Positions 2,839 to 32,462 of a stretch of 64,000 nucleotides of DNA are shown piece by piece. Source of the stretch: a virus. Each line of letters starts with the position of its first letter. Positions within the stretch are counted from its first letter, which is position 1. A program made the translations under genes and the position numbers. The stretch spans positions 62,001-126,000 of the IMG/VR virus record IMGVR_UViG_3300044729_002678, one strand, 5' to 3'. The notes beneath the pieces are model-generated. The model did no database searches. It was not told the origin of the DNA and worked only from the letters and a program-made list of their open reading frames with translations.

Positions 2839-2839
2839 T

Positions 2840-16476: not shown

Positions 16477-18243
16477 TTATTTTTTATGTGATTTAAATCC
16501 CTGTCCCTTCATCCACCAAGCCAATGCCCAAGGATTATCAATACCCGGTTCATCTTTCATCGCTTTTACTGTTTTTTTCCATCCTTCGGGTGCAACTTCG
16601 TTGGTTACTTGTTTATTTTCCACAAATGGTTTAAAAGCCGAAATAACTTTATCTGCTGTCATTTTATCAAATTTGCTTTGCATTGCAACATCACCAACTT
16701 TGTATAATTTCAACAACTTTTCTGCTGTTTTCTTATCAACTTTTGTAGAACCAACGCGGGAAGTAGAACCATCTACTACACTCTTTAACAAGTCAGATAA
16801 TTTTACATTTGCTTCATTTACTTTTTTTTTTAAAATAAGATTTGATAGTTTCATTTCACCAACAAAATCTTTTGCATTTTCTTTATCTTGCGGGTCTACA
16901 TCGGTTACTTTATAAGTCTTACCACCAACAGTGAAAGTATCCTCACCTGCTGCAATTGCTCTTGCTCTTTCAGCACCAAATTCATTACCTTCATCCATTA
17001 CGATTTCTGCATCACTCAATTTTCCTTTAACAAGACCACTTACAGTTTTAATTACAACTTCGTTACCTTTAACAGAATAAACCATTCCTGTCTTATTTTG
17101 TGATTTAAGATGGACGGTATCTCCAAACTTTGGTTTTTTTACTTCCTTCACTAAATTTTGAAATTTCATCAATACAATTGCGTAATTACCCACTTTTCTT
17201 TCTGCACCAGCTGCGTATTTTTTATTTACAATTGCAATAGTGTTCCCAGATACTTTAATTATATACATTGGTATCATTTCAGTTGAGAAATCATATTTAA
17301 TTCCTGCTTTTTTCAATTCAGAACCAACGTTCATAAATGATGATGCGTTTTTAACTGCCGCTTCAATTTTATCTAAATCAGCATCGTATTTACCTTCGTT
17401 TACTGATTCTTTAATAACATTCTCCATTAATCCAATTGCAATATCTTTAACTTCTCTTTCTGCACCAGCTGCATATTTTTTATTTACAATTGCAATAGTG
17501 TTTCCAGATACTTTAATTCTATACATTGGTATCATTGAAGTTGAGAAATCATACTTTACACCAATTTTCTTTAATTCAGAACCAACGTTCATAAATGATG
17601 ATGCGTTTTTAACTGCTGCTTCAATTTTATCTAAATCAGCATCATACTTACCTTCATTGATTGATTTTTTGTTTATTAATTGACTTAATTTCATGTTTTC
17701 TCCTACAAAATCTTTTGCATTTTCTTTATCTTCGGAATCTACATCCGTTACTTTAAATGTTTTATCACCAACTTGGAATGTATCTTCACCTGCTGCAATT
17801 GCTCTTGCTCTTTCAGCACCAAATTCATTACCTTCTTTTATTTCGTAATATTTACCCAATATCTCACCAATTTCATCATAAGACGATTCCAACCTTTGCT
17901 GGAGAGTTGATACTTCTTTGATAGTGTTTGTAAAAATCTTAAAAGATTCGTTCATAGATTTCATATGACGAGAAACAGTTACCTTATCAAACCAATCACC
18001 AGTTTCTTGTAAAGTTAATTTATGAGCGGTTTCAACAATCTTTTTAATGTTTTGGTATGCTTCCATCAAATTACCATTATGGTAAATTGCCTCACCAATT
18101 TTTCGGTATGAAGCAACTGCCTCAACAAAAGCCCTTTTTTCTTCATTGGTCATTTTTGTATCATCCAAATCTTCCTCACCAATGTTTAATCTACGATAAT
18201 CCATATGCTGTGATTCTTTTAATAAGTTAAATAGTTTTTTCAT
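16477..18243 (-). CDS. Multi-domain putative capsid-cargo protein with internal protease sites
   Basis: 588 aa. It begins MKKLFNLLKES, a possible leader ending L-x-E at residue 10. Module A, EFGAERARAIAAGEDTF...GKTxKVTDV, occurs at about 139-168 and 420-449. Module B, EGKYDADLDKIEAAVKNASSF, occurs at 197 and 283 (86-residue period, nearly identical DNA). Each A copy is followed by a Met-led segment resembling a leader (MKLSQLINKKSINE at 184-197; MKLSNLILKKKVNE at 464-477). SINE, SVNE and KVNE fit [I/L/V]-x-E prohead-protease sites. A short domain from about 551 (GWKKTVKAMKDEPGIDNPWALAWWMKGQG) ends it. It lies two genes downstream of gp21. Cargo role and processing are inferred. Confidence 0.8.
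   Translation of the reverse strand: MKKLFNLLKESQHMDYRRLNIGEEDLDDTKMTNEEKRAFVEAVASYRKIGEAIYHNGNLMEAYQNIKKIVETAHKLTLQETGDWFDKVTVSRHMKSMNESFKIFTNTIKEVSTLQQRLESSYDEIGEILGKYYEIKEGNEFGAERARAIAAGEDTFQVGDKTFKVTDVDSEDKENAKDFVGENMKLSQLINKKSINEGKYDADLDKIEAAVKNASSFMNVGSELKKIGVKYDFSTSMIPMYRIKVSGNTIAIVNKKYAAGAEREVKDIAIGLMENVIKESVNEGKYDADLDKIEAAVKNASSFMNVGSELKKAGIKYDFSTEMIPMYIIKVSGNTIAIVNKKYAAGAERKVGNYAIVLMKFQNLVKEVKKPKFGDTVHLKSQNKTGMVYSVKGNEVVIKTVSGLVKGKLSDAEIVMDEGNEFGAERARAIAAGEDTFTVGGKTYKVTDVDPQDKENAKDFVGEMKLSNLILKKKVNEANVKLSDLLKSVVDGSTSRVGSTKVDKKTAEKLLKLYKVGDVAMQSKFDKMTADKVISAFKPFVENKQVTNEVAPEGWKKTVKAMKDEPGIDNPWALAWWMKGQGFKSHKK
17325..17675 (-). repeat. 258-bp tandem duplication in the cargo gene
   Basis: Two nearly identical DNA copies encode the start of module B, offset 258 bp (86 codons). 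Most differences are single third-position changes. Confidence 0.8.
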
Positions 18244-18257
18244 TTCATTTCCTTTTT

Positions 18258-19202
18258 TCAGTAAGAACCTGGTCTATTACCTTTTTTCATAGAAGTTGCC
18301 CAAATACCAATCATCTTTTTAATATCGGCGGGAATTTCTTTATCATAAATAGTTAGTTTACCATCTTTTCCTATATGGGCTATCGTTTCATAATCACCAT
18401 CTTTTTCTTCTGCCCTATTCCAAATAGTTAAACCATTACCCAAATATCCAGACCCAATATCGTATTTTTTAGCTTCGTTTAGTAATTTTTCCGAATATAC
18501 AGTCATACCGGTGTTGTCCTCAATTGTAAATATATAACCCGGTATATTTGTAACCTTTTTCATATGTTCAAACTTTGCAGGAATTTCATTTTTTGTTTTT
18601 ACCTGTGTTTGATAATACACTTTTTTATTAAACGATACTACAATAGTCCAAGGACCTGTTTGAGAACCCTTTTTAATACCGGCCATCATTTTTGCTGAAT
18701 TAGTAGCTTCGTTTACTGATTCTTTGATATATTTCATAGAAGAGTTTGAACCATCGGTAAAGAATACATTATCACCATCAATCATTTTTACTTTTCTTTT
18801 GAATGGGCCTTTTTTACCTAAAGCTGCTTCCCAATGTGGATTATCAACAACTTTAACCATTTGACCAACTTTGATTTCTTTTTTTACTGATTCTTGAAGC
18901 TTTTTAATTAGCTTATTTTGAATTGGATTATTCGGTTTTCCAGACACCGCAGTCACAAAATCCATTCTGTCTGAAAGTTTTCCCTTCTTAACAAATTGGA
19001 AAACTTTTTCGATATCCAAATTGTGAGTATCAACAAACTTTTGAACTGCATCTTTATTTAAACCGGTAAGTCCACCAATTTCCATTGCGGTTCTCGAAGC
19101 GGACTCTAATTTTAAGCTTTTTTGTGTGTTTTGAACTGCCACCAAATTCATTTCTTTTTTTGCAATCTCTCTAATCATTTTTTTGAGTTGTTCTAATTTC
19201 AT
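18258..19202 (-). CDS. Putative capsid-cargo protein with leader and internal protease sites
   Basis: 314 aa from the ATG at 19202, which overlaps the gp21 stop as ATGA; a TTG four codons earlier is also open but less likely. The leader MKLEQLKKMIREIAKKEMN resembles the leaders of other head-region proteins. Candidate [L/I/V]-x-E sites are KLE at 31-33, VNE in KESVNEATN near 165, and LNE in KLLNEAKKYD near 245. These separate three segments: one SAP/UBA-like helical (TAMEIGGLTGLNKDAVQKFVDTHNLD), one with GQMVKVVDNPHWEAALGKKGPFKRKV (KOW-like), and two beta-rich. Function is unknown. Confidence 0.78.
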   Translation of the reverse strand: MKLEQLKKMIREIAKKEMNLVAVQNTQKSLKLESASRTAMEIGGLTGLNKDAVQKFVDTHNLDIEKVFQFVKKGKLSDRMDFVTAVSGKPNNPIQNKLIKKLQESVKKEIKVGQMVKVVDNPHWEAALGKKGPFKRKVKMIDGDNVFFTDGSNSSMKYIKESVNEATNSAKMMAGIKKGSQTGPWTIVVSFNKKVYYQTQVKTKNEIPAKFEHMKKVTNIPGYIFTIEDNTGMTVYSEKLLNEAKKYDIGSGYLGNGLTIWNRAEEKDGDYETIAHIGKDGKLTIYDKEIPADIKKMIGIWATSMKKGNRPGSY

Positions 19203-19837
19203 TTTGTTTCCCAATTTTTAGGACATTCGCAATATCCACCAATTTCACAAATAATATCTCGCATTATACTATTAGCAGTTTCATATTTATTCACTTTTGA
19301 ACCCCTACTAACACCCTCATTAACGGGTTTCATAAAAGCCCCATGAGTAGATGGGTTACTTACAAAATCCCAACAAATTAAATCAAAATCGTTTTCTACA
19401 GCAACAGTACCATCTTCTCTAATTTGACGAACTGAACCCATACCCCGTGAAGATATTCCTACCGTACAACCTGCTTCTATCAATTCTTTAAGTATTCTGC
19501 CCGATGGGGTATTTAGTATTTCTACTTTACCAACAACATCTTTACCATTCCACCATACATCTCTAATAATATGTGAAGTATTTTTTAATTCCACAACCGA
19601 TGATTCTGGGTGGTCTAACTCACCATATGCACGATTTTCTGTTATCTCTCTACCCTTATATTTATCAACCTCACGCTTCAAAATATTTTCGGGATATATT
19701 CTACCATTTTGGTTTTTTTCATTTGCCCTTTGAAGAACACCAGTTACAATTAATCTACCATTACCATTCATAGCAGCTTCTTTAAGCTGTTGTGGTTTTA
19801 CATCAAATACAATAGTATCAATTAATAGTTGTTTCAT
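19199..19837 (-). CDS. Prohead core protease, T4 gp21-like
   Basis: 212 aa from the ATG at 19837, one base after the upstream stop; a GTG three codons earlier (19846) is the alternative. Peptidase family U9/S80 signatures are present: NGRIYPENILKREVD, catalytic His76 in GELDHP, and catalytic Ser129/130 in VGISSRGMG, followed by FDLICWDFVSNPSTHGA. T4 gp21 uses His85 and Ser140 with the same spacing. It matures head proteins by cutting after [L/I/V]-x-E and should process capsid, scaffold and the neighbouring cargo proteins. Confidence 0.95.
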   Translation of the reverse strand: MKQLLIDTIVFDVKPQQLKEAAMNGNGRLIVTGVLQRANEKNQNGRIYPENILKREVDKYKGREITENRAYGELDHPESSVVELKNTSHIIRDVWWNGKDVVGKVEILNTPSGRILKELIEAGCTVGISSRGMGSVRQIREDGTVAVENDFDLICWDFVSNPSTHGAFMKPVNEGVSRGSKVNKYETANSIMRDIICEIGGYCECPKNWETK

Positions 19838-19838
19838 A

Positions 19839-20366
19839 TCAGGCACCCAATTGTCTTATTTTACTTGAAATTCGGTTTAATCGCTCTGATATTTTAGAAA
19901 AATTGTTTCTTGTTTTTTTCCAATAAGCACCAGATGAAATACCCATTTCTGTCTTTAGTTTTATATTTTGATTCACTAAGTGTTCAACCTCATATATCTT
20001 TCTATTAATTTCTTTAATAGCCTTATTAATTTTATATTGTGGGGAACCTGTTTCATCTTTTCGGTATTGACGATAGTTCATTTCATTGATGACATCCTCA
20101 ATCTTTTTTTCCCAATTTTCTAAAAAATTTCTTTTTACATTTTTTACTTTTTTATACCCCAACACCTCAATATGGTCATTATCCATATCTCCTTTACTTT
20201 TCGCAAAAGCATGTGGAGTTCGTGGTGGACCAGCACCGCCATCCAAATTACCGGTAACATTTTGTTCACCCAAATCCTCATCATCCTTTTCATCGGGATT
20301 GACGATTTCCTCTTCTTCTAATTGCTTAAATTTTTTATCAAGCTCTTCAATTAAAAACCTACTCAT
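19839..20366 (-). CDS. Unknown head-module protein
   Basis: 175 aa. An acidic N-terminus (LDKKFKQLEEEEIVNPDEKDDEDLG) and a Gly/Pro-rich linker are followed by a helical, basic C-terminal half (KINKAIKEINRKIYEVEHLVNQNIKLK...SERLNRISSKIRQLGA). The start codon overlaps the upstream stop (TAATG). Its position between portal and protease genes suggests a prohead-core or head-completion part. No family is recognised. Confidence 0.7.
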   Translation of the reverse strand: MSRFLIEELDKKFKQLEEEEIVNPDEKDDEDLGEQNVTGNLDGGAGPPRTPHAFAKSKGDMDNDHIEVLGYKKVKNVKRNFLENWEKKIEDVINEMNYRQYRKDETGSPQYKINKAIKEINRKIYEVEHLVNQNIKLKTEMGISSGAYWKKTRNNFSKISERLNRISSKIRQLGA

Positions 20367-21205
20367 TATTGAACACCCTTTAATTCGTTTAACAATTGAT
20401 AGTATCTTAAAAGTCCAAGTGCTTGAACCTCCGATACGATTTTTGCGTTGGATAAATTATCAATCAACCCAATAACCTCTTTTAACTTAATGGAAGAAAC
20501 TTTATCAGTAATTTTAAACTTTGAGAATTCATTTTTAAGTTTTTTACTTTCCCTTAAAATAAATCTTTTTAAATTGCCTGAATTATCAATATTGTTAATA
20601 TAATTTCTAAGAACCAATTTTTGTTCGCTGGTTAGTTCTTTATACTTATCATTAAATTTATCAACTAAAAACTTATAAGCCAATAACCTAACATCTTTTG
20701 ATTCTTTACTATACAAATCAGTATTTTCTTCTTTTATAGGTTTTTTTGTTTTTGTTATATTTTCTAAAATTTGATTTTTACATTCAACCCATTCTTTTGG
20801 ATATGTATTTTCTTGATTCTCAAATAGTTTATATATAGTGGCAAGTGATTTATAGTTATTTACCCTATACTTAAAAAAATCTTTAGCATCAAACTTTTCA
20901 TTTATTGATTTAATAAGATTATATTTTTCTTTTTTTAAATTGGTTTCATTTAATTTTTTTCTTTCAACCAAAATAATATTAAGAAACTCACTTGCTTTGT
21001 ATGTATTATCAAAATTTTCTTTGACAAGATATTGATACATTTTAAGTTCTTTACTTAATTCACTACCCTGCTTAAAATGCTTTTTAATTATAGATAATCC
21101 TATTGAATTTTTTTCATTCAAAGTATCAGATGCAATCTGCCTAACAAGAAGTTCAAATAAAACCCCAGTGTTTTTAAATTTAGAATGCTTTAATTTAGTG
21201 TTCAT
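20366..21205 (-). CDS. Unknown helical head-module protein
   Basis: 279 aa, Lys/Asn-rich and mostly helical (MNTKLKHSKFKNTGVLFELLVRQIASDTLNEKNS...). It has a leader with a clear AGGATAA ribosome site and a TATTTATT element upstream. It lies just after the portal gene. Similar-sized proteins occur near the portal in distant T4-like phages, but I cannot name a function. Confidence 0.72.
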   Translation of the reverse strand: MNTKLKHSKFKNTGVLFELLVRQIASDTLNEKNSIGLSIIKKHFKQGSELSKELKMYQYLVKENFDNTYKASEFLNIILVERKKLNETNLKKEKYNLIKSINEKFDAKDFFKYRVNNYKSLATIYKLFENQENTYPKEWVECKNQILENITKTKKPIKEENTDLYSKESKDVRLLAYKFLVDKFNDKYKELTSEQKLVLRNYINNIDNSGNLKRFILRESKKLKNEFSKFKITDKVSSIKLKEVIGLIDNLSNAKIVSEVQALGLLRYYQLLNELKGVQ

Positions 21206-21230
21206 TTATAATTATCCTATCTTATCAATA

Positions 21231-21238
21231 AATAAATA
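21231..21238 (-). promoter_or_regulatory. Variant late promoter-like element TATTTATT
   Basis: Coding-strand GTATATTTATTTATTG, 25 bases before the start at 21205. One base differs from the TATTTATA element. Confidence 0.3.
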
Positions 21239-21250
21239 TACAAAATTTAA

Positions 21251-23152
21251 TTAAACATCGTTATTTAATATGTTTCTTTCATCCAACATATCAAATTTTT
21301 GGTTTTTTTCATCGGTATCTGTCAACAATGACTCAACTATAATTTTTTTAGTTTTTATTTTTGAATTTTGTAAGCTTGTTTTTAACTGCATCCCTTCAAC
21401 AGAAAGTGGTGATTTCCTAAATGTATGGTATGCTTTTTCAGGTTTTATATCCGTTTCATATCCCATTGCGTTTCTTCCAAAAGAACTATCATCAGTTCCA
21501 GCAATACTACCCTCTTCCGGTCTACCAGCCCCTTCAAATCCACCAGGAGGTGAACCACCTTCATTATCACCAGAAGCAGGTTGCCCTCCCGCTTCTGCCG
21601 ATTGTTGTGATAATGCTGCCAAATCATGCGGAGTTCCAAACGATTCACCAGTCTTAATTGGGTCATTACCCTCAGTTTCAATTTGGGACTGTCTAAATCC
21701 TAATTTCAAATCGTTAATAACTTTAACCTGTTCTGCTTTCCACTCATCATCGGACATGTTAAATATATTTTTATATACCCATTCTTGTGAAAGTAGTTTT
21801 GATGTTTTTATATCCGATGCCAATCGCACATTTTCAATCCAAAGAGCAACCTTTTCTTGCTGATAAATTATTGATGGTGGTGTTAATTCTAAATAGAAGT
21901 TAGATAAGGCCTCATTTTCGTATCCCTGTGCATACAAATGTATGATTGCTATTTTTGTCAATTCGGATAAAACAATTTTTTGTACCCGCTCAATACTCCT
22001 AGCAAAACGAATATCTTGTTGAGCAAGCGTCGCTTTACCCTCTACACCCTCTTCATAACCAATAAATGCTTTTGGAACTTTAAGAGCGGCCTGCATTCGG
22101 TTTTTAAGATAATTTATATCCTCAATACCAGTGAATTCCATTCCACCCAAAGTATCAATTTGAGTACCACTTTGACCACCTCTTACGGGTAAATAATAAT
22201 CTTCTAACATATTTTGTATGTTAAATTTAAGATTATAATCACCAGTAGCTTCATCTACATAAGGAACTTTTTTCATTTGGTCTATAATGTTCCTAACATG
22301 CTGGTCTACTTCATTTGGTGGTATGTTACCAACATCAATTTTAAATACCCTTTTTTCAGGAGCACGCATAATACGATGAATTAACATCGCATCTTCCATA
22401 AGGGTTAATTGTTTCCAAGTTTTTCTAGCAGGTTCTAATAAGGAACGACCATAAGGTAAAAAGTTTGTGTCTGAAAATAACCTAAAATGGGCTATTTTAT
22501 AAAATGGAATATAATTTTGTATATCGTTGCTAGATTTTTGATAATTAAATCCGGTAGCACCACCACCCATCGTTGTCATTTTAAATCTAACTTCATATGG
22601 GTTATCGGAATTAAACCCCTCTTCTCTTTCAATTTCATATGCTGATATTGGTGATACATTTACAATACCAATACCCTCTTCAATATCTAAGTTAAGATAG
22701 TAATCGCCATATTTATTCATCCCTCTAATCCACGCCCAAAGATTAAATTCTATATTAAGGACATCATAAAAAAGATTTTGTAATATTTTTTTAATATTTT
22801 CATCATCCGAATTAATCCTCAATACATCCCCAAGATCGTTCTTGAGTGTGCATTCATCCGAGTAAATATCTAAAACGGATGCAATAATTGAATCTTTATC
22901 CATCGCCTCATAATCAGTATAAAGTTCTAACCGATTGGATGAATAATTGTATTGATTATTGTAAGTTTCCCAATTTTGACGAGATGAGTGTAATCTACCA
23001 AATCTATCGTAGTAGGAAGTTCCTTTTATATTACCCTGCGATTGTAATCGTTGTGTATCAATAGCCCTAGTTTTACCCTTACCAATTCTTCTTACTACAA
23101 CCTGAGTTGAAAAGAGTTTTTGTAATCTACCGAATAAAGATTTATCTGCCAT
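21251..23152 (-). CDS. Portal vertex protein, T4 gp20-like
   Basis: 633 aa. Portal features include NRLELYTDYEAMDKDSIIASVLDIYSDECT near the start, FNLWAWIRGMNKYGDYYLNLD, the MRAPEKRVFKIDVGNIPPNEVDQHVRNIIDQMKK block, GGMEFTGIEDINYLKNRMQAALKVPKAFIGYEEG, and the ATLAQQDIRFARSIERVQ segment. It is longer than T4 gp20 (524), with a Gly/Pro-rich C-terminal region near 500-560. It follows the large terminase, so packaging-motor parts are adjacent. It has no Shine-Dalgarno; TATTTATA lies 3 bases from the ATG. Confidence 0.95.
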   Translation of the reverse strand: MADKSLFGRLQKLFSTQVVVRRIGKGKTRAIDTQRLQSQGNIKGTSYYDRFGRLHSSRQNWETYNNQYNYSSNRLELYTDYEAMDKDSIIASVLDIYSDECTLKNDLGDVLRINSDDENIKKILQNLFYDVLNIEFNLWAWIRGMNKYGDYYLNLDIEEGIGIVNVSPISAYEIEREEGFNSDNPYEVRFKMTTMGGGATGFNYQKSSNDIQNYIPFYKIAHFRLFSDTNFLPYGRSLLEPARKTWKQLTLMEDAMLIHRIMRAPEKRVFKIDVGNIPPNEVDQHVRNIIDQMKKVPYVDEATGDYNLKFNIQNMLEDYYLPVRGGQSGTQIDTLGGMEFTGIEDINYLKNRMQAALKVPKAFIGYEEGVEGKATLAQQDIRFARSIERVQKIVLSELTKIAIIHLYAQGYENEALSNFYLELTPPSIIYQQEKVALWIENVRLASDIKTSKLLSQEWVYKNIFNMSDDEWKAEQVKVINDLKLGFRQSQIETEGNDPIKTGESFGTPHDLAALSQQSAEAGGQPASGDNEGGSPPGGFEGAGRPEEGSIAGTDDSSFGRNAMGYETDIKPEKAYHTFRKSPLSVEGMQLKTSLQNSKIKTKKIIVESLLTDTDEKNQKFDMLDERNILNNDV

Positions 23153-23155
23153 AAG

Positions 23156-23163
23156 TATAAATA
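23156..23163 (-). promoter_or_regulatory. Candidate late promoter element TATTTATA at the portal start
   Basis: Coding-strand TTATATTTATAC ends 3 bases before the portal ATG. If it is a promoter, the transcript would be leaderless or nearly so. Confidence 0.4.
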
Positions 23164-23171
23164 TAATTTTT

Positions 23172-24755
23172 TTAAAATAACCAACCTAAATCAACATCAT
23201 TACCACGAATATCTTTCATAATATATGGATTTTGGCCTGAGTTTTTACTTGAGAATACCGTTATTTGATTTCCAGATACACGGGTGATACTACTTAAAGC
23301 ATTTCTTGTTAAGTTCATACCTTGCTGTCTTAACTTCAATGCGGTATCTCTAACCCAAAGACCTGTAGAAAATGATATAACCAAATCATCATTATATCCC
23401 CTTTGTGCCTCTGCTTTTGACCCATTCCATATAAAAACAAATAACTCATCCAACAATCGTTTAGAGTGAATTATTGGTGATTTTTCTCTCATATAAGTAT
23501 CTAATTTAGATACTATTAAAGGCCTCGTTTTTTGTGTCATTGAAAATCCTGGCACCATATCTTCTTTTTGCTTTAAATCCCATCCCCTCCTTAAATGAAT
23601 ATCTTCATCTATATATCCCAACTCCCTATACGAATAGTAAAGATTTCCATAATTACGGTCAATTACTTCCTGAATAACAGCCCATCCAATATTTGCATTT
23701 TCAATCACCAAAAGGGCGTTGTTCCATTCTGCTGCTACCGATGATAAGAAAGCACCATATTGTTTTGTTTCTATTTTACCTTTGTATTCCGCCACCTGCT
23801 CTAACTGCTCAACATCAATCACATGAAAAGCAGAATAATCTGCTCCATCTCCCCTTGCAACATCCGCCACAACTATATAATCTTTTGAATAGTTAGGATA
23901 ATCCCATATCCAATAATTTGCATCAAATCCACGCTTCTCAATAGGTTCTGTTACATGCGTTTCTTTATACCACTCCAATACAGAACCATCAACGACTGTG
24001 TAACCTGATGAAATAAAATCAGTATCACATTCTTGAGCAGCACCCTTTTCCCCCAATAATCTTGTTTGTTCATCTCTCCATCTTTGATTTCTTTCGGGGT
24101 GAACCGTCCAGTGTAATCTCGTTGGATGCCATTTATCACCAGCTTCTCCCTGCTGCCAAACTTTATGGAAAAAATTACCAACCCCATTTGGTGTTGAAAG
24201 AACTATTGCACCACCACCAGTTGAAAGTGTGGATTGTGCAGATAACCAAATCTCTTCAATACCTTTGATAAATGCGGCCTCATCTATAATCAATAAAGAA
24301 AGTGCTTCAGAACGTCCTGCGGTTTCAGTCGCAGAAACTGCTTTGATTTGAGAACCATTTTTTAATCGAAGTGATAATTTATTATCTTCAGCAGCACCCA
24401 CCTTTAACCAACTTGGTAGATTATCATACATAAATCTAACCTTTGTAACCAAGTTTTTTGCTACATCTTGCGTTGTTGCAATTACAAGAACATTCTTATC
24501 TCTATGAAATATCATCAACCAAGTTGCGTATCCAGCTGAAATAGTTGATATACCTAATTGGCGGGATTTTAGAATAACATTAAATCGGTGGGTTTTAAAA
24601 GAATCAATTAAATCTTCTTGGAAATCATATAGGTTAAATAATATTTTTCCCCTATGCGGGTGCTGTATGTAACAATATTTTTTAAAAAAATATATTGGGT
24701 CTTTCGCACACTTTACATACTCTTCTGATATTAATTCTTTTAAAGTTTTCGGCAT
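23172..24755 (-). CDS. Terminase large subunit, T4 gp17-like
   Basis: 527 aa. ATPase domain: Walker A variant LKSRQLGIS at 62-70, Walker B LLIIDEAAF at 154-162, coupling motif LSTPNG at 186-191. Nuclease domain: VVADVARGDGADYSAF with Asp298, VIENAN with Glu352, and a late Asp in YNDDLVIS near 455, the RNase H-like metal triad. It is slightly shorter than T4 gp17 (610). It cuts and pumps concatemeric DNA into the prohead through the portal encoded next to it. A separate small subunit was not recognised. Confidence 0.95.
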   Translation of the reverse strand: MPKTLKELISEEYVKCAKDPIYFFKKYCYIQHPHRGKILFNLYDFQEDLIDSFKTHRFNVILKSRQLGISTISAGYATWLMIFHRDKNVLVIATTQDVAKNLVTKVRFMYDNLPSWLKVGAAEDNKLSLRLKNGSQIKAVSATETAGRSEALSLLIIDEAAFIKGIEEIWLSAQSTLSTGGGAIVLSTPNGVGNFFHKVWQQGEAGDKWHPTRLHWTVHPERNQRWRDEQTRLLGEKGAAQECDTDFISSGYTVVDGSVLEWYKETHVTEPIEKRGFDANYWIWDYPNYSKDYIVVADVARGDGADYSAFHVIDVEQLEQVAEYKGKIETKQYGAFLSSVAAEWNNALLVIENANIGWAVIQEVIDRNYGNLYYSYRELGYIDEDIHLRRGWDLKQKEDMVPGFSMTQKTRPLIVSKLDTYMREKSPIIHSKRLLDELFVFIWNGSKAEAQRGYNDDLVISFSTGLWVRDTALKLRQQGMNLTRNALSSITRVSGNQITVFSSKNSGQNPYIMKDIRGNDVDLGWLF

Positions 24756-24764
24756 TGGTTTTTA

Positions 24765-25611: not shown

Positions 25612-25629
25612 AACTTTTCCTCCTATTAT

Positions 25630-25637
25630 TATAAATA
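25630..25637 (-). promoter_or_regulatory. Candidate late promoter element TATTTATA
   Basis: Coding-strand GTATTTATAATAATAGGAGG, 18 bases before the ATG at 25611 and joined to an AGGAGG ribosome site. Confidence 0.45.
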
Positions 25638-25652
25638 CTGATTTTAATTTTA

Positions 25653-26588
25653 TTAAACTAATTTTGATATAAGTTCATTTGCTTTACCTATTAACAAATC
25701 ATTATATGAACTGTTTGTTATTATTGGTAGAGCTGCTATTATATCTTTTTTGGATTGAATATACATTTTTGATTTTGGGCTGTTTTCAAACTTTTTTGCG
25801 CCCCAAAGATGATAGATTGATTTATTTAATAACTCCTGTGCTTCTTCGGGTTCACCATCTAAATTAAAAGAATAAAACGATTTATTGGTGTATATAACTG
25901 GAACTAATGCTTTTGTTTTTACGTTCTTAACCCCCTTTGATAATGCGGCTAAAAACCATTGCTCCAATGTAATTTGAGCGGAAGATGCGGCATACATCTT
26001 TTTTTTCTCATCTGTCATATTTTTTATTTCACCACTCGCACCCAATACAAATTTAAAATACTTAGAAACATATTCTTTTTTAAATTTCTCATTTTTCATA
26101 CCAACTACCGCACAATTCATTGGAAAAGAATCTATAAATAGTTGTTTAAGTTTTTCATCCCATCTCCAACTAGATGAATGTTCAATATCTAATGGATTCC
26201 CATATGTGAATGGTGATTCTCTATGTAAATACAATAAATCACAATCATCCATTTCTTTTTTTAGGTTTTTATATAATACCAAATCAGTATCATAAATAAC
26301 AAAAGGCGCTTTTAATTTAGACATAGCCCATATTTTAGGGGATGCCCAAAAATTATTAGAAATCATTTCATATGGATAATCATCAAAATAATGGGTAATA
26401 ACTTTATCGTATAATGGGGTTATATTCCAATTATCATAAAATTCTTTTGATTTTTTATCGGTAATTAAATAAAGTGGTGTATTTGAATTGTAAATTTTGT
26501 GTACTATACACGAATACATTTGAACCAATAACTCAAAACTTCCAGGCGGTCTATCATCGTTGACCAAAAATACATGATACGCATTCAT
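25653..26588 (-). CDS. Glycosyltransferase-like protein (DUF6734-type)
   Basis: 311 aa. It shows an N-terminal nucleotide-sugar-transferase-like layout: PLYLITDKKSKEFYDN, then KLKAPFVIYDTDLVLYKNLK with a D-x-D motif (Asp-Thr-Asp near 99-101) that in GT-A enzymes binds metal and sugar nucleotide. ITLEQWFLAALSKG and IYHLWGAKKFENSP near the end resemble bacterial capsule/LPS glycosyltransferase-like proteins of Bacteroidota. It may modify DNA, virion protein or host envelope; the substrate cannot be read from sequence. It is unusual inside a head/cargo region. Confidence 0.65.
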   Translation of the reverse strand: MNAYHVFLVNDDRPPGSFELLVQMYSCIVHKIYNSNTPLYLITDKKSKEFYDNWNITPLYDKVITHYFDDYPYEMISNNFWASPKIWAMSKLKAPFVIYDTDLVLYKNLKKEMDDCDLLYLHRESPFTYGNPLDIEHSSSWRWDEKLKQLFIDSFPMNCAVVGMKNEKFKKEYVSKYFKFVLGASGEIKNMTDEKKKMYAASSAQITLEQWFLAALSKGVKNVKTKALVPVIYTNKSFYSFNLDGEPEEAQELLNKSIYHLWGAKKFENSPKSKMYIQSKKDIIAALPIITNSSYNDLLIGKANELISKLV

Positions 26589-26602
26589 CGAAACTTATTT
26601 AG

Positions 26603-26610
26603 TATAAATA
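26603..26610 (-). promoter_or_regulatory. Candidate late promoter element TATTTATA
   Basis: Coding-strand CATATTTATAC, 14 bases before the ATG at 26588. Confidence 0.4.
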
Positions 26611-26625
26611 TGGATTAAAAAGTAA

Positions 26626-26895
26626 TTAATCCAATTCTTTTATCATTACTTTTAATGGTGTTTTTCCCTTTAGTATCCTATGATATGTTTCTTTTTGTAT
26701 GGTAAATACATCCCCAACTTTAAGTTCTATTGGTAGTTTATTATCAGATTGAAAATACCAACCTTTTCCATCAACTACTTCAACCAATCTTGTTTTTTTA
26801 TCTCTATGCCATACTAATTCTGAATTATCTACATCCGTATCAAAAGACCGGTAGATAATACTTTTAGATTTGGTTTCTGCGTATGGTTTACTCAT
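26626..26895 (-). CDS. Small cupin-like protein
   Basis: 89 aa. The sequence SELVWHRDKKTRLVEVVDGKGWYFQ...LPIELKVGDVFTIQKETYHRILKG follows the cupin pattern: a His-led strand, a G-D-x-x-x-I-x-x-x-x-x-H second motif, and a small beta-barrel. Such short cupins are frequent in T4-like phages of aquatic bacteria but their ligand is unknown. It ends 2 bases before the next gene's region and is likely co-transcribed with the 585-aa cargo protein upstream. Confidence 0.75.
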   Translation of the reverse strand: MSKPYAETKSKSIIYRSFDTDVDNSELVWHRDKKTRLVEVVDGKGWYFQSDNKLPIELKVGDVFTIQKETYHRILKGKTPLKVMIKELD

Positions 26896-26896
26896 T

Positions 26897-28654
26897 TTAC
26901 CAATATGAATTTATATCCTCACCACCACCGATTTTAGACCAATGGCGGGGTAAATTACAACTCCAATAACCTGGTGTAGTTTTATCTTTCTTATCAGGAC
27001 AATTGTGCCTGTCTGAAAATGCTTTTCTTGCTTCTGGGTTATTTATTTTTGCAGTTAACCCACCCTTTACATCGCCGAAAGTTACTTTTCTAATATTATC
27101 ACTTTCTGGGTCTTTTACATAAACTACATATTTTTTACCTTCACCTGAATTTCTTTTGGGTGAATTTAATTCTACTTCTTGTCCCTGATATTCTGCTTCG
27201 GTTAAAATTGGAAAATCTAAAAGAACTTTTTTTCCCTCATAAATACCAACCTTACCTAAATCGGAATCTAAAAACCATTCATCGCTTTCATTCATTGGTA
27301 TAAATTCACCCTTTTTCCAAAGAGTTCTACATTCATTTACCAACTTAAAGAATTTGGGAGAACCATACCTGTAAATATTTTCTGATATTGGTTTTTTGTT
27401 TTTTATGTGATATTGAAGCCCCTCACTCAAGTTTTTTTTTACTTCACCCAACGGATTACCATTTACATTTAATTCACCATTTAGGTAATGTTTCGCATTT
27501 ACCATTAGAGTTTTTGCACTAACAATATCAGATTGCCACCAATGTGGAAAATCAATCTCTTCTTCCGCATTATCAAATTGCCCTAATAATTCATATAATT
27601 CTTTTGCATATTTTGCGATACGAAAAAGGTCTGCTTTTAACATATTTGGTTCATCGTCTTGATGTCCTACATCTATATCCTCTGTCAAACTTTTTAACTT
27701 CTTTAACTTTGTTGTTAAATCAGCCATATCTTTCAAATGGGCTTTTTGCGCAGGGGTTCTATCACCCTGTGGAATTTTTGTAAACTCCACCGTTTTTTTG
27801 GCGTTATCTTTTAATTTTTTTTGGATTGATAACATCTCCTTTTTTTGTTTTTCAGTACCCTTTCCCACTTTTTTAACTGAAGAAACCGATGGTTCATCAT
27901 CATCAACTTCATTTATAACAGGGTATTTCTTACCACCAAATTCAAACTCTTTCAATCCTTCTTTTCTTGCTTTAAAAAGTGCCCCAGTAAAAGCATTTCC
28001 CTCGTTTACTGATTCTTTTTTCATTTTTCTTTTTTGTAGAACTAATTGTTGAATTTGTGAAAATATGGATTGTATATCCTTATCTAATTGTTTTTCATCT
28101 GCGCTCATTGGTGATTCAATATCTACATTGGAGTAAAGTTTTTTCTTTTTTGCAATTAATACATCCACCTTTTTAATTAAATCATTTTTTACTTTATCCA
28201 AATCTTTTATTATATCTTCGGTAGTATTTTCTTTTATTACCCCCTCCCGCCTATTCAACAACTTAAACGCAATGGTCTGCATTTTCATAAGTCCTGCGTT
28301 TACAAATTGGTCCCTATTCTCCTGTTTCTTCAATTGGTCATAAACGGATATGATAGCGGATGCTGAGTATGAATCTACTTTCATCTGCTTTCCGGTCTTA
28401 GGGTCTTTAACTGATTTATAACCTGACCTCATAACATCTCTTAGTTGAGTTATTACCGGCGGTTCATTCTTTGCTTCATTTACTACCCCTTCTTCGGTTT
28501 TCCAACCCCCACCAGCTGCTTTGTATTGTTTTGCTGCCCAGGCATTGGCGTAGGCACTTGGATATACGTCAAACTTTTTTTTTGCCTGCGATTTATAGTA
28601 AGACCATTTTGAAGGGTCGGTTGGAACATTCTTTTCTACCAATTGTTTTTTCAT
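26897..28654 (-). CDS. Multi-domain putative capsid-cargo polyprotein
   Basis: 585 aa from the ATG at 28654 with GAGG upstream; a TTG four codons earlier is less likely. Residues 10-53 (PTDPSKWSYYKSQAKKKFDVYPSAYANAW...GGGW) resemble DUF5872. A GNAFTGALFKARKEGLKEFEFGGKKYPV module (219-246) is related to module A of the 588-aa protein. The last 90 residues (VVYVKDPES...VTFGDVKGG...DRHNC...YWSCNLPRHW) match a module known from cyanophages and large algal viruses. Candidate [L/I/V]-x-E cuts: VVNE60, SVNE218, VINE249, SLTE325, NLSE411, PISE425, ILTE486, several at domain edges. Packaging and processing are inferred. Confidence 0.8.
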   Translation of the reverse strand: MKKQLVEKNVPTDPSKWSYYKSQAKKKFDVYPSAYANAWAAKQYKAAGGGWKTEEGVVNEAKNEPPVITQLRDVMRSGYKSVKDPKTGKQMKVDSYSASAIISVYDQLKKQENRDQFVNAGLMKMQTIAFKLLNRREGVIKENTTEDIIKDLDKVKNDLIKKVDVLIAKKKKLYSNVDIESPMSADEKQLDKDIQSIFSQIQQLVLQKRKMKKESVNEGNAFTGALFKARKEGLKEFEFGGKKYPVINEVDDDEPSVSSVKKVGKGTEKQKKEMLSIQKKLKDNAKKTVEFTKIPQGDRTPAQKAHLKDMADLTTKLKKLKSLTEDIDVGHQDDEPNMLKADLFRIAKYAKELYELLGQFDNAEEEIDFPHWWQSDIVSAKTLMVNAKHYLNGELNVNGNPLGEVKKNLSEGLQYHIKNKKPISENIYRYGSPKFFKLVNECRTLWKKGEFIPMNESDEWFLDSDLGKVGIYEGKKVLLDFPILTEAEYQGQEVELNSPKRNSGEGKKYVVYVKDPESDNIRKVTFGDVKGGLTAKINNPEARKAFSDRHNCPDKKDKTTPGYWSCNLPRHWSKIGGGEDINSYW

Positions 28655-28667
28655 AATTAACCTCAAA

Positions 28668-29162
28668 TTATGGTGTATAATTAGATATGTTCATTTTAAC
28701 AAATGTTTCAATATCTTTTGGTGATAATACCTGCTGCATTTCAAATCCAGAAAAAGCCCGCGTACCTAAAAATACAAATCCTTTTGCGGTTTCATAGTTC
28801 GCAGGAATATCATCATCAGTATTAACAAATTCAGATGGTAAATAAGTTACCAAAGCGTTAAATACCGAATGGTGTGGCCCAATTTCCGGATTTGGTTTTA
28901 CCGATATCGGTTGATTTCCTATCCTAAATTTTCTAATCATTAAACCATACCCCTTACCAGGATTTTGGTATCTTCTAAACCAATTATCTTTTTCTAAACG
29001 ATAAACAGCAGTTTTTCCATCTACCTTTCTCATAAGAATCAATCTTATCATAGATTCGTTTGGTGGATCGGTTGGCATGTTTCTAAAATCTTTAACACTT
29101 GCTTCAGTTAAAACTGATTTTATTGATTCTCTAATCAATTTTCTTAATTGGGATTGTTTCAT
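28668..29162 (-). CDS. Putative capsid-targeted internal protein
   Basis: 164 aa. The 20-residue leader MKQSQLRKLIRESIKSVLTE ends in L-T-E and is followed by ASVKDFRNMPTDPPNES. The leader matches position by position that of the next gene upstream in transcription (QLxxLI...V[L/I]xE). This is the arrangement of T4 internal proteins, whose N-terminal capsid-targeting sequence is removed by gp21. The mature part is beta-rich (AVYRLEKDNWFRRYQNPGKGYGLMIRKFRIG) and belongs to no family I recognise. GGAG lies 10 bases before the ATG. Confidence 0.75.
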   Translation of the reverse strand: MKQSQLRKLIRESIKSVLTEASVKDFRNMPTDPPNESMIRLILMRKVDGKTAVYRLEKDNWFRRYQNPGKGYGLMIRKFRIGNQPISVKPNPEIGPHHSVFNALVTYLPSEFVNTDDDIPANYETAKGFVFLGTRAFSGFEMQQVLSPKDIETFVKMNISNYTP

Positions 29163-29166
29163 TTTT

Positions 29167-29511
29167 TTATGCTCCGGTTTTTACATATACAGGCGTTTGC
29201 CCTTTTTCTTTTTCATTTCCTTTTTTGGCATCCCCACCCTTTTTTTGAGCTGCCCGTTTTCTTCTTACAAAACTTGCTATCCCATCCTTACCCAACTTTT
29301 GGGCTTTTTCTTTGGATAAGCAAGCAGAATATGGTTCTCCCTCTTCCGCATCACCACACTTACCAAGTTTTTCACCTGTGGTAGAATATCTATCCCAACC
29401 ACCACCAGTAGTTGAGCCGGTTTTACCCTTGCCAAACCATTTTCTTAAATCTTCTACAATAACTTTTCTTACTGCTGATTTAATTAGGTGCTCAAGTTGT
29501 GGTTTCTTCAA
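29167..29511 (-). CDS. Putative capsid-targeted small basic protein (DUF6321-like)
   Basis: 114 aa if started at the TTG at 29511, which has GGAGAAAG upstream and gives a 20-residue leader LKKPQLEHLIKSAVRKVIVE like that of the neighbouring 164-aa protein; an ATG at 29556 would add 15 residues and deepen the overlap with the previous gene. The mature part GGGWDRYSTTGEKLGKCGDAEEGEPYSACLSKEKAQKLGKDGIASFVRRKRAAQKKGG has two Cys and a conserved W-RY-G-GKCG-GE-SACL-KAK pattern seen in virion proteins of cyanophages and giant viruses. It is probably packaged, perhaps DNA-binding. Confidence 0.72.
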   Translation of the reverse strand: MKKPQLEHLIKSAVRKVIVEDLRKWFGKGKTGSTTGGGWDRYSTTGEKLGKCGDAEEGEPYSACLSKEKAQKLGKDGIASFVRRKRAAQKKGGDAKKGNEKEKGQTPVYVKTGA

Positions 29512-30094
29512 GTTCTTTCTCCAATTTTCCAATATAATCAACTCGTAACTTTTCAAAATCAGTATCTACTTTTGATAGAACATCTTCTATATTAACTCCA
29601 TTCCATTCTTCAACCGAACCATTTTCGTTGATGAACTTCATTTTTAACGCAACTTTAAGGGCCTCTTTTTCAAATTGAGCCTGCTTTAACCATGCTTTCG
29701 CATTCTCAAGCATTTTTCTTTTTTCATATCTATCATACTCTCCACTTATTCTTAGTTTTGATTCCATACTTAATACACAATCAAAACACATGCCGTGAAA
29801 AGCACGCATTTTTTCATCCAATCTTTTTGGGTTTTTACAGTCGCAAATTTCCTTCATACAATTAGGAAACTTTCTCAAGTCCTCCCTTAATTGATGAAGC
29901 TTGCCGAGCTTTACTTTATATCCGGCTTTTTGCTCCCACATATCCCCATTCTCATCTTCCCATTGTTCACCAACTGAACGACGAACATAAGTAGGTGAGT
30001 TTTCAAAACCAACGGTTGTTTTTGTTTGCGTTTTATGAACACCCGCCAACATTTCAGTAACCGCTTTTGTATTTTTTAATTTACTATTTCCCAT
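29492..30094 (-). CDS. Unknown protein with cysteine cluster
   Basis: 200 aa. A possible zinc site is formed by CMKEICDC near 79-86 and HGMCFDC near 100-106. The C-terminal half is helical (RYEKRKMLENAKAWLKQAQFEKEALKVALKMKF). The N-terminal MGNSKLKNTKAVTEMLAG is unlike the cargo leaders. It overlaps the next gene by about 20 bases. Similar Cys-cluster proteins occur in T4-like phages near head genes; function is unknown. Confidence 0.7.
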   Translation of the reverse strand: MGNSKLKNTKAVTEMLAGVHKTQTKTTVGFENSPTYVRRSVGEQWEDENGDMWEQKAGYKVKLGKLHQLREDLRKFPNCMKEICDCKNPKRLDEKMRAFHGMCFDCVLSMESKLRISGEYDRYEKRKMLENAKAWLKQAQFEKEALKVALKMKFINENGSVEEWNGVNIEDVLSKVDTDFEKLRVDYIGKLEKELEETTT

Positions 30095-30103
30095 AACTTT
30101 TTA

Positions 30104-30111
30104 TATAAATA
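30104..30111 (-). promoter_or_regulatory. Candidate late promoter element TATTTATA
   Basis: Coding-strand ATATATTTATATAAAAAG, 9 bases before the ATG at 30094. Confidence 0.4.
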
Positions 30112-30116
30112 TATAA

Positions 30117-32462
30117 TTAATAGAATAAACCTAAAATTTGATTAATCGGAGCGAAAACTCCAGTAAGTTTCAGAGTATTGCCTTTATATACAAAAACAAT
30201 TCCTTCTTTTGGAACAATTTTATTTACACCACCAATCGCTTCTAATCTTTCTAATTCCATTTTAAGCTTAGCAACTTTCTTAGGGTCTCCACCCGTTTTA
30301 ACATCTTTAATAGTTTGGTCTAATCTCGTTTTAATACTACGAATTGCTTCATCGGGATTTACAGTTAGTACTGAACTCATAAATGATAATACCTCAGAAC
30401 CAACACCCAAAAATATATCCTCAAATGGTCGAATATTATCTTTTGATATTTTTTGGTGGTCGTTTTTATCCACACCCAATGCCCATTGTAATACTTTTTC
30501 CGATTTAATTGTTTTGTTACTTAATCCAAAACCTTTATTAAAGAATGCCCACCTTCTTATTAATCCGTCTTTTGTTTCTTTATCTAACTTTTCAGGTGAA
30601 TTTTTTTCTATGTAATCATCCCACCAAGCCTGATGATACTCTGCCATACCATAGCTATCTTTTAACCCAAATTTAGATTGTAATTTTTGCAACATCCCCA
30701 AAAACTTTGGTTGTAATTGTTTTAAGCTTTCCTCTTTTGGTAATTGAGTAACGGGTGGTCCTTGTATGGTATATTTGTCTTGAACATGCTGATTTACTTG
30801 TTTAATCATCCCAGCTAATACGGTAGCATCAGATTGCTCTGCTCCAATTGCCACACCACTATCATCGTATTCAGTTGTGTTATGAAATACTAATAGAGCC
30901 TGACCATAAGGTATTACATTTACGGAGGTTGGATAAATAACCTCTAAGTTCATAAATTTCTTACCCTGCTTAAATATTTTGTCCCGTTGTGCTTTGGATA
31001 AACTACCCATTGCTTTTTCTAAATCTTTCATAGCAAAGTTGTAAGCATCAGTTAATCCACCTCTACCAGCAAATTTAGTAGCAACATCCTTTATGGACAT
31101 TGCGTTTTCACCACTATTTGCTAAATGCCCTTTATTTCTTGCAGCAATTAATCCCCTATCATCTCTCCAGCTAATAGCAAGTGCTTGGCCATCTGTTTTT
31201 TCTCGAGTCAGTTCAAGTTCACCATTTAGGGCTTTTGTTATTATGTTTTTTAAATCACCAAAAGTTAAATTTAATTCATTATCAAATGGATGATTCATAT
31301 GACCGTATGCACCACCTTCGGTTAAAAAGTTGGAAAACCTTTTACCAATAGTTTCCAATAATTTATATTGTTTTTTATCTAATATTTCTAGTTTTTTACC
31401 AAGTACCCACTCAACAACCTCATAACCCATTCCTCTATATACTTCTTTTAAATCAACATCTTCTAATCCAGTTATTTCAACCTCCGGCGCATTTTGGGTA
31501 GTATCTAACGGAGATGTTGCCAGGTCAGCAGTTAAATAATCTTCGGTTTCAGGAATATCCAACAAATCATCCATTGTGAATACCTTTCTCCTACTTACAT
31601 ATTGATAAAAATCACCAGTACCTTTTGCACTTTTTCTAACCATTACATCTGCTTTTGGAAAATGCATTTGGGTATATCCACCATTTACAAACCAATAATC
31701 ATTTTTTTGTGCACCTTTTCCTAGTCCTAATATTCTTTCTTTATTATCTGGAACATAAATTGCATCAGGTTCTCCTGCATCCGCACCATATCCGCCACCT
31801 AATGTCGATTCAATTAGGGGAACTATATTATAATTTTGTAAAAAATTGGTTACTATTTCGTTTACACCACCCAACCTTTTAGAAATCATATTAAATATTT
31901 CCTGATTCCATTGTGGGTATGCTTTCTTAAAACCGGCTTTCTTTTGTGAATCGCTCCCCTTCGATAACCAATTACGAACATCAGTTCCACTTATTGGATT
32001 CTTTTGAGAAGGTGATACATACACATACCCATGGTCTTTATAACCAAATGCGGGTTTGAAACCATCGCCCGAATGAAATTTCTTAAAATACTTTCCACCA
32101 AGTCTTGCAGCGTCTTTCTCACCAACAACAGTTACAAATGCGGTTGTTTCATCTGAAAACTTTTTTAGTATTTCCGTTGGATTATATGGATTTTTTACTT
32201 GAACAATTTTGTTGGGTGGAACACCAAACATTGTGGTCATTATTTTTTTCTTCTCCAAAAAATTGAAAGGGTCTTTTGGTCCACCACTTTTGTTGGATGT
32301 CCCAATGAATACATTTTCTTTACCGAATTTTGATACTAAATGCGCATATGTTGCGTAATGCCCTTTATGAAATGGTTGAAATCTACCCGCGTAAACTACA
32401 ACAGTCTTATTTACTTCTTCGGTTAATACAGATTTAACCCATTCTTTTATTAAATTTCCCAT
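30117..32462 (-). CDS. Nucleotidyltransferase / ligase-like fusion with capsid-targeting-like leader
   Basis: 781 aa. The leader MGNLIKEWVKSVLTE ends in L-T-E at residue 15. Residues 20-190 are a HIGH-type nucleotidyltransferase: GRFQPFHKGHY (26-36) and NPISGTDVRNWLSKG (155-169, the ISxTxxR motif of NMN/pantetheine adenylyltransferases). A middle domain (219-382) carries GADAGEPDAIYVPDN. From 383 a covalent-nucleotidyltransferase-like region has REKTDGQALAISW (K-x-D-G, Lys422) and FMNLEVI (503-509), as in ATP-dependent RNA/DNA ligases. Candidate cuts VNE202, LIE218 and LTE382 lie between domains. It may repair NAD or nucleic acid after injection; that is inference. Confidence 0.8.
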   Translation of the reverse strand: MGNLIKEWVKSVLTEEVNKTVVVYAGRFQPFHKGHYATYAHLVSKFGKENVFIGTSNKSGGPKDPFNFLEKKKIMTTMFGVPPNKIVQVKNPYNPTEILKKFSDETTAFVTVVGEKDAARLGGKYFKKFHSGDGFKPAFGYKDHGYVYVSPSQKNPISGTDVRNWLSKGSDSQKKAGFKKAYPQWNQEIFNMISKRLGGVNEIVTNFLQNYNIVPLIESTLGGGYGADAGEPDAIYVPDNKERILGLGKGAQKNDYWFVNGGYTQMHFPKADVMVRKSAKGTGDFYQYVSRRKVFTMDDLLDIPETEDYLTADLATSPLDTTQNAPEVEITGLEDVDLKEVYRGMGYEVVEWVLGKKLEILDKKQYKLLETIGKRFSNFLTEGGAYGHMNHPFDNELNLTFGDLKNIITKALNGELELTREKTDGQALAISWRDDRGLIAARNKGHLANSGENAMSIKDVATKFAGRGGLTDAYNFAMKDLEKAMGSLSKAQRDKIFKQGKKFMNLEVIYPTSVNVIPYGQALLVFHNTTEYDDSGVAIGAEQSDATVLAGMIKQVNQHVQDKYTIQGPPVTQLPKEESLKQLQPKFLGMLQKLQSKFGLKDSYGMAEYHQAWWDDYIEKNSPEKLDKETKDGLIRRWAFFNKGFGLSNKTIKSEKVLQWALGVDKNDHQKISKDNIRPFEDIFLGVGSEVLSFMSSVLTVNPDEAIRSIKTRLDQTIKDVKTGGDPKKVAKLKMELERLEAIGGVNKIVPKEGIVFVYKGNTLKLTGVFAPINQILGLFY

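What the first reader, a model, noticed from the sequence alone, without database searches (positions are those of the whole stretch)
16477..32462. Capsid-cargo polyproteins cut by the prohead protease
Proteins at 16477, 18258, 26897, 28668, 29167 and 30117 begin with short leaders, several of the type M-K-x-x-QL-x-x-LI...V-[L/I]-x-E, ending in the [L/I/V]-x-E rule of T4 gp21. Many have further such sites (VNE, INE, LTE, LSE, ISE), several at domain boundaries, and two internal stretches in the 588-aa protein look like leaders that have become internal (MKLSQLINKKSINE, MKLSNLILKKKVNE). T4 has single-domain internal proteins with such leaders; here several cargo domains seem strung together and would be released by cutting, a packaged polyprotein system.
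Basis: partly seen in the sequence, partly recalled or inferred. Interest (0 to 1): 0.83.

Follow-up and report, generated by a model that had tools for sequence, protein, structure and literature searches.

The report
Phage capsid cargo polyproteins, swappable modules
A T4-like phage and many of its relatives appear to make long chains of small protein modules, joined by the cutting signal of the phage's own head protease, so that one gene would load several separate proteins into the virus head; the modules are traded between phages like beads on a string.

Summary
The bare [LIV]-x-E rule barely separates these proteins from the rest of the phage (19.5 vs 15.4 sites per 1000 aa). The extended junction S-[VI]-N-E does: 4 in the six proteins (0.07 expected), 1 in 42,627 aa of the rest. 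In IMG/VR relatives the same ~80-aa modules recur in different proteins and orders, joined by ESVNE|, ESINE| or ESVVSE|. Homology breakpoints fall on [LIV]xE in these proteins (58% vs 25% by chance) and not in other proteins. One module, EYQG, is preceded by [LIVM]xE|[AGS] in 46 of 46 contexts, with P2 free; in two small non-T4 phages the stand-alone protein starts at that residue. The rule matches this phage's capsid site QLVTE|A, aligned with T4 gp23 65|66; the T4 His85/Ser140 positions of its gp21 homologue are conserved. Best explanation: capsid-targeted cargo polyproteins cut by the gp21-type protease and delivered with the DNA. Cleavage and packaging are inferred. A cyanophage virion holds an NMNAT and a DUF3008 protein (PMC9602691). 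I found no published description.

The parts
16480..18243 (-). 588-aa cargo polyprotein, about 8 predicted products. Predicted cuts after aa 10, 137, 197, 283, 367, 418 (MDE, weak), 477 and 549 (TNE, off the rule, weak)
   Evidence: sequence, module map, relatives with other orders, invariant M1 and E10 in a 13-row alignment
18214..18243 (-). N-terminal leader MKKLFNLLKE|S, same form as T4 gp24 MAKINELLRE|S
   Evidence: E10 invariant; T4 sequences read
17833..18213 (-). Module A (SQHMDYRR...LGKYYEIKE|). In phage Mel-JY01 a separate 154-aa gene next to the protease ends at LGKYYEINGKK-stop
17653..17832 (-). Module B copy 1 (GNEFGAERA...) plus internal leader MKLSQLINKKSINE|
17395..17652 (-). 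Module C copy 1 (GKYDADLDK...) ending in ESVNE|
   Evidence: module family with 12 members, 7 different left and 10 different right neighbours
17395..17409 (-). Linker DNA GAATCAGTAAACGAA (ESVNE)
   Evidence: conserved spelling
17143..17394 (-). Module C copy 2, ending in LVKE|
16990..17142 (-). Module D (VKKPKFGDTVHLKSQN..., short beta-rich piece)
16813..16989 (-). Module B copy 2 plus internal leader MKLSNLILKKKVNE|
16480..16812 (-). C-terminal modules (ANVKLSDLLKS..., then VAPEGWKK...WALAWWMKGQG)
18261..19214 (-). 318-aa cargo polyprotein: leader plus module to ESVNE| (aa 169), ATNSAKMM module to LLNE| (aa 247), AKKYDIGSGYLG module
   Evidence: the ATNSAKMM module sits inside the 588-type protein in L008
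18708..18722 (-). Linker DNA GAATCAGTAAACGAA (ESVNE)
19202..19846 (-). gp21-family prohead protease; T4 His85 and Ser140 positions conserved; own putative C-terminal site PVNE|G
26900..28666 (-). 589-aa cargo polyprotein: leader MKKQLVE|, then about 7 modules; predicted cuts VVNE 64, VIKE 146, SVNE 222, LTE 329, LSE 415, LTE 490
   Evidence: relatives
26900..27196 (-). EYQG module ('HVA1 family' in some phages), released N-terminus predicted at AEYQG
   Evidence: 46 of 46 contexts preceded by [LIVM]xE|[AGS]; stand-alone homologues start MATYKG, MAKYQG
28001..28015 (-). Linker DNA GAATCAGTAAACGAG (ESVNE)
28671..29162 (-). 164-aa single-domain leader protein, MKQSQLRKLIRESIKSVLTE|A
29170..29556 (-). 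129-aa single-domain basic leader protein, ...AVRKVIVE|D
30120..32462 (-). 781-aa protein: leader (LTE15|), NMNAT-like domain, long flexible linker, LTE382|, ligase-like C-terminal part (GGAYGHMNHPF...EKTDGQ; 'ligase-like' is a reading of the motif, not a database hit)
   Evidence: E15 and E382 invariant among 9 relatives; low-confidence segments 1-14 and 199-396
12974..14611 (-). Major capsid protein gp23 homologue with cleavage site QLVTE|A that calibrates the protease
   Evidence: alignment to T4 gp23 65|66

Best explanation
These are capsid cargo polyproteins. A short N-terminal, T4-like capsid-targeting leader brings the whole chain into the prohead core. The gp21-type protease, which also matures the capsid protein, then cuts after aliphatic-x-Glu joints (in this clade mostly ESVNE| or ESINE|), removing the leader and releasing several small, mostly basic domains that stay in the head and enter the host with the DNA. 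Shown by sequence: leaders, modular joints, shuffling, and match to the capsid cleavage site. Inferred: cutting, packaging, injection and host takeover or counter-defence roles.
For: gp21 homologue with the T4 His85/Ser140 positions conserved. The MCP site QLVTE|A aligns exactly with T4 FLTE|A; relatives read LVSE, LLDE, IVSE, LISE, so V at P3 is accepted. S[VI]NE: 4 vs 0.07 expected, 1 in 42,627 aa elsewhere. Homology breakpoints on [LIV]xE 58% vs 25% null (z 10), alignment ends peaking exactly after the Glu; control proteins 9% vs 24% null. 133 nonidentical proteins with joints, median internal segment 81 aa, 44 of 54 module families with more than one neighbour. EYQG module: 46/46 contexts, P3 only L/I/V/M, P1 only E, P2 many residues; non-T4 phages CRP-902 and Aegir start the protein there. 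In the 781-aa family the two Glu residues invariant in all nine rows are E15 (leader) and E382 (between the domains). Separate-gene forms with a leader where others have a joint. Modules basic: 77% pI>8 vs 46% of size-matched proteins. Virion mass spectrometry of cyanophage S-SCSM1 detected its NMNAT (leader MKSFLQFLKE|) and a DUF3008 protein (PMC9602691).
Against: No mass spectrometry of this phage or its near relatives; no cleavage seen. Bare [LIV]xE density is near background. Some predicted joints (MDE 418, VTNE 549, VKE 367) are weak. The S-SCSM1 NMNAT is only distantly similar to the window's (BLAST E 0.025), so virion evidence is by analogy for that part. AlphaFold confidence is modest (mean pLDDT 54 and 52).
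Confidence: 0.78

Rival explanations
1. Ordinary multidomain virion or core proteins: only the N-terminal leader is cut, and the modules stay covalently linked. ESVNE is a flexible linker inherited through domain shuffling, not a protease site.
For: Linker DNA is nearly identical across unrelated flanks (61% one spelling vs 4% expected), so part of the ESVNE identity is descent, not selection.
Against: Joints outside the ESVNE type have different sequences and still keep aliphatic-x-Glu and a small P1' (46/46 for EYQG; LTE/LLE/LME/LIE before GGAYGHM). Stand-alone homologues start at the same residue. The capsid site obeys the same rule.
Confidence: 0.13
2. Scaffold or core proteins: the chains are internal scaffolding that the protease chops to peptides which leave the head, as with T4 gp22, gp67 and gp68.
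For: The genes lie beside protease, scaffold and MCP genes. T4 core proteins are also cut many times by gp21 (PMC9026906).
Against: Cuts lie between modules, not inside them. Modules are mostly basic, whereas the gp22-like scaffold is acidic. Enzymes such as NMNAT are included, and an NMNAT and a DUF3008 protein survive in cyanophage virions.
Confidence: 0.05
3. Polyvalent-type injected proteins processed by another protease (an own metallopeptidase domain, or in the host after injection), with gp21 only removing the leader.
For: The multidomain injected-protein concept is established (PMC5512222). A weak M91-like peptidase hit in the immuto 907-aa protein (E 0.006).
Against: No peptidase domain in the window proteins. 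The joint motif equals the gp21/MCP rule.
Confidence: 0.04

Closest known systems
T4 internal (ejection) proteins IPI, IPII, IPIII and Alt with capsid targeting sequences, cut by gp21
   Same: Short N-terminal leader ending in [LI]xE (T4 IPII/IPIII MKTYQEFIAE|, gp24 MAKINELLRE|, read), gp21-family protease, head gene neighbourhood, basic small products
   Different: T4 makes one mature domain per leader; here one chain carries up to about 9 modules with protease-type sites at the joints, and modules move between chains
Phage and plasmid polyvalent proteins (Iyer et al. 2017, PMC5512222)
   Same: Several unrelated domains in one chain, presumed injected with DNA
   Different: Different domains; no metallopeptidase found here; processing would be by the prohead protease at regular joints, which that paper does not describe in the passages I read
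Giant phage (phiKZ, SPN3US) head proteins processed by prohead protease
   Same: Related protease cuts many internal head proteins after a short motif ending in Glu (SPN3US AXE); E proteins enter the cell (PMC7411985)
   Different: Described cuts remove propeptides; no strings of exchangeable modules
Polyproteins of eukaryotic viruses
   Same: One precursor, virus protease, several products
   Different: No homology claimed; here the products would be optional cargo released inside the capsid

Membership tests
T4-type internal proteins processed by gp21 | gp21-family protease encoded nearby with catalytic residues | tested here: met
   PF03420 2e-32; T4 H85 and S140 positions conserved
T4-type internal proteins processed by gp21 | Short N-terminal propeptide ending in aliphatic-x-Glu | tested here: met
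   Six of six window proteins; 55% of 145 cargo N-termini vs 9% shuffled
T4-type internal proteins processed by gp21 | One mature domain per propeptide | tested here: not met
   588-, 318-, 589- and 781-aa proteins carry 2 to about 8 modules; met for the 164- and 129-aa proteins
T4-type internal proteins processed by gp21 | Present in the virion and injected | not testable with these tools
   Only indirect: NMNAT and DUF3008 protein in S-SCSM1 virion (PMC9602691)
T4-type internal proteins processed by gp21 | Actually cut at the predicted sites | not testable with these tools
   Needs N-terminomics or in vitro assay
Polyvalent proteins | Two or more domains of disparate activity in one chain near virion genes | tested here: inconclusive
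   Modular chains met, but most modules have no known activity
Polyvalent proteins | Carries domains of the published polyvalent set such as MPTase, ArdC, MuF-C | tested here: not met
   No such Pfam, PHROG or NCBIfam hit in the window proteins
Viral polyprotein | Precursor with virus-protease sites at domain joints | tested here: met
   Breakpoints at sites, 46/46 EYQG contexts, calibrated by MCP site
Viral polyprotein | Separate mature products demonstrated | not testable with these tools
   No proteomics held

The most novel reading that the evidence does not exclude
A cassette system: the joint is both protease site and recombination seam. A near-constant 15-base word, GAATCAGTAAACGAA, embeds the cut site between otherwise unrelated modules, so that homologous recombination at the seam swaps cargo modules in frame between phages and every swap yields a correctly cut, packaged product.
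Probability: 0.4. Interest if true: 0.9.

Novelty: new variant of a known kind. Interest (0 to 1): 0.8.

Why it matters
If true, dsDNA phages use capsid-released polyproteins, and the cut rule gives a way to read head cargo directly from genomes: cutting at [LIVM]xE|[AGS] joints splits proteins of unknown function into dozens of small module families that are predicted to be injected at time zero. That would point to a large reservoir of untested early host-takeover or counter-defence proteins in marine and freshwater T4-like phages, and offers a ready-made scheme for packaging several proteins in a phage head.

Tried and rejected
Bare [LIV]xE enrichment: rejected as evidence. First breakpoint tests without a sharpness filter gave diluted signals; the seeds had been merged into longer representatives, repaired. 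Whole-model Foldseek of the 588-aa model: no match with E below 0.001, so no fold assigned. Pfam, PHROG and NCBIfam name almost none of the modules. Nucleotide-level selection on the linker: 13 orthologous pairs show linker codon identity 0.91 vs flanks 0.87, so no special constraint seen; common descent of the linker is preferred (small sample, partly biased by loci fetched with that word). S-SCSM1 virion list vs leaders: most virion proteins are tail parts, so leader counts there are uninformative apart from ORF91. Literature searches for phage polyproteins found no matching report in the held library; subscription papers and preprints are not covered.
Full report
WHAT WAS CLAIMED. The window is bases 62001-126000 of a 161,618-base IMG/VR record of a T4-like phage. 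It encodes a gp21-family protease (19199-19846), a gp23 major capsid protein (12971-14611) and, among genes of the same strand, the six proteins.

CHECK AGAINST CHANCE. The bare rule is not informative. The six proteins have 50 [LIV]xE sites against 36 in shuffles, the rest of the phage 658 against 560, and the reversed motif is just as enriched in the six. The extended form is informative: S[VI]NE occurs 4 times (0.07 expected), ES[VI]NE 3 times (0.01 expected), and S[VI]NE once in 42,627 residues of the rest of the proteome. Leaders are real as a class: 80 of 145 complete cargo-type N-termini from relatives carry [LIVMF][LIVM]xE in residues 4-20, against 12.6 in shuffles.

CALIBRATION OF THE PROTEASE. 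T4 gp21 cuts after L/I-x-E (PMC9026906). Aligning capsid proteins, the T4 gp23 cut FLTE|A (residue 65) falls exactly on QLVTE|A in this phage and on LVSE|A, LLDE|A, IVSE|A and LISE|A in relatives. So V at P3 and A at P1' are very probably used by this clade's protease. The T4 His85 and Ser140 positions are conserved (that these are the catalytic residues of gp21 is from my own knowledge). The protease itself carries PVNE|G near its C-terminus, ESVINE|S in relative L014. T4 gp24 begins MAKINELLRE|S and IPII/IPIII begin MKTYQEFIAE, the same form as MKKLFNLLKE|S here.

MODULES ARE SHUFFLED AND THE JOINTS ARE THE SITES. Relatives of the 588-, 589-, 781- and 318-aa proteins were fetched from IMG/VR. 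In them the same modules appear in other proteins and orders; for example L042 encodes 899 aa with joints ESVVSE|, ESVNE|, ESVVNE|, ESIVSE|, ESVINE|, ESVVNE|, and L231 has 702 aa with six exact linker words. Cutting 133 nonidentical proteins at strict joints gives internal pieces of median 81 aa (IQR 64-103) and 54 module families with two or more members, 44 of them with more than one kind of neighbour. A few of those families come from unrelated head proteins with a chance SINE. Without using joints to define modules, homology breakpoints found by all-against-all BLAST lie near [LIV]xE in 58% of starts (25% expected, z 10), with alignment ends peaking directly after the Glu; in all other proteins of the same loci the figure is 9% against 24%.

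SELECTION ON THE RULE, NOT JUST INHERITANCE OF A LINKER. The C-terminal EYQG module of the 589-aa protein occurs in 46 distinct contexts, each preceded by [LIVM]xE|[AGS], with about a dozen different P2 residues but only aliphatic or Met at P3 and only Glu at P1. In non-T4 phages CRP-902 and Aegir the same domain is a separate gene that starts M-A-T-Y-K-G and M-A-K-Y-Q-G, the residue where the predicted cut would free it. In the 781-aa family, of ten [LIV]xE sites in the window protein, Glu is invariant in all nine rows only at the leader (E15) and between the domains (E382); E382 is read as LTE, LME, LLE, LIE or VAE, the last in a row cut off and misaligned there. Module A stands alone in phage Mel-JY01 and stops where the window continues IKE|GNEF. 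The SFGFG module is a separate leader gene in L018 and internal, leader retained, in L014, which is how leaders can become internal.

STRUCTURE. AlphaFold2 of the 588-aa protein (12-row alignment) is of modest quality (mean pLDDT 54), but the two C modules reach about 80-90 and the low-confidence stretches 182-199, 276-284, 358-418 and 466-479 contain the joints 197, 279/283, 367 and 477. In the 781-aa model the leader (1-14) and 199-396, which holds joint 382, are low-confidence parts around a confident NMNAT-like domain.

PACKAGING. Not tested here. Supporting published data: virion mass spectrometry of T4-like cyanophage S-SCSM1 found an NMNAT (ORF91, leader MKSFLQFLKE|) and a DUF3008 protein (ORF93), with neighbours ORF89, 90 and 92 (PMC9602691), and that paper cites NMNAT-like proteins in two further cyanophage virions. 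DUF3008 is the first module of the L042 string and, by sequence, of L231. The NMNATs are only distantly similar. Released modules are mostly basic: 77% with pI above 8, against 46% of size-matched phage proteins, as the T4 internal proteins are described to be.

LINKER DNA. Among 89 distinct ESVNE joints collected before any search by that word, 61% are spelled GAATCAGTAAACGAA, against 4% expected from codon usage, while flanking nucleotide identity is at background on both sides. The joint thus travels with the modules or is the seam at which they recombine. Thirteen orthologous pairs give no sign of extra nucleotide constraint.

MECHANISM. Most likely: the leader binds the prohead core, the chain is enclosed, the protease activated on closure cuts leaders and joints, peptides leave, and folded basic modules and enzymes stay with the DNA and are injected. 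Shown: leaders, joints, shuffling, match to the capsid site. Inferred: cutting, packaging, injection, function. The NMNAT may rebuild NAD early in infection; that is a guess.

NOVELTY. T4 internal proteins, giant-phage propeptides (PMC7411985) and polyvalent proteins (PMC5512222) are each partly similar; none, in what I could read, describes strings of exchangeable cargo modules with prohead-protease joints. I rate it a new variant of a known kind.

Noticed in passing
L053:4418-6601 and L052:1-2148: An intein-like insertion (PF14890, E 5e-6) interrupts the KWSYYK module of the 589-type polyprotein right inside ...KFDVYP/SAYANGW.
   Followed up: partly
L008:2-1183 and 1203-3527: Terminase/portal region of relative L008 carries intein-like sequence (ECSDNHPF...), and its portal ORF is 774 aa instead of 633.
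   Followed up: no
L115:7148-11206, L114:2-3922: An HD-type phosphohydrolase domain (PF01966) is inserted between the NMNAT and the ligase-like part, giving a 1352-aa chain.
   Followed up: partly
L388:435-1124 (Roseobacter phage CRP-6): The EYQG-type domain is fused to what looks like an HK97-type prohead protease.
   Followed up: no
L004:6817-7086 (own phage, outside the window): Another leader protein, MKVKLSEVKKVLKKHNINE|GIF..., 89 aa, among tail genes.
   Followed up: no
L126:10519-12471 (Melnitz-3), L124:4436-5998 (S-SCSM1): Cyano- and methylophage relatives seem to use a different joint, (E)EVELDE| or EIDE|, at module borders, suggesting clade-specific joints under the same rule.
   Followed up: partly
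window 14643-15734: The scaffold-like protein contains tandem acidic repeats (EDEMGGEFETDEPVEE, near copies).
   Followed up: no
L125:14611-17358 (LR756508, 484-kb uncultured phage): The NMNAT-ligase fusion also occurs in a huge phage, with an extra N-terminal ParB-like looking piece.
   Followed up: no
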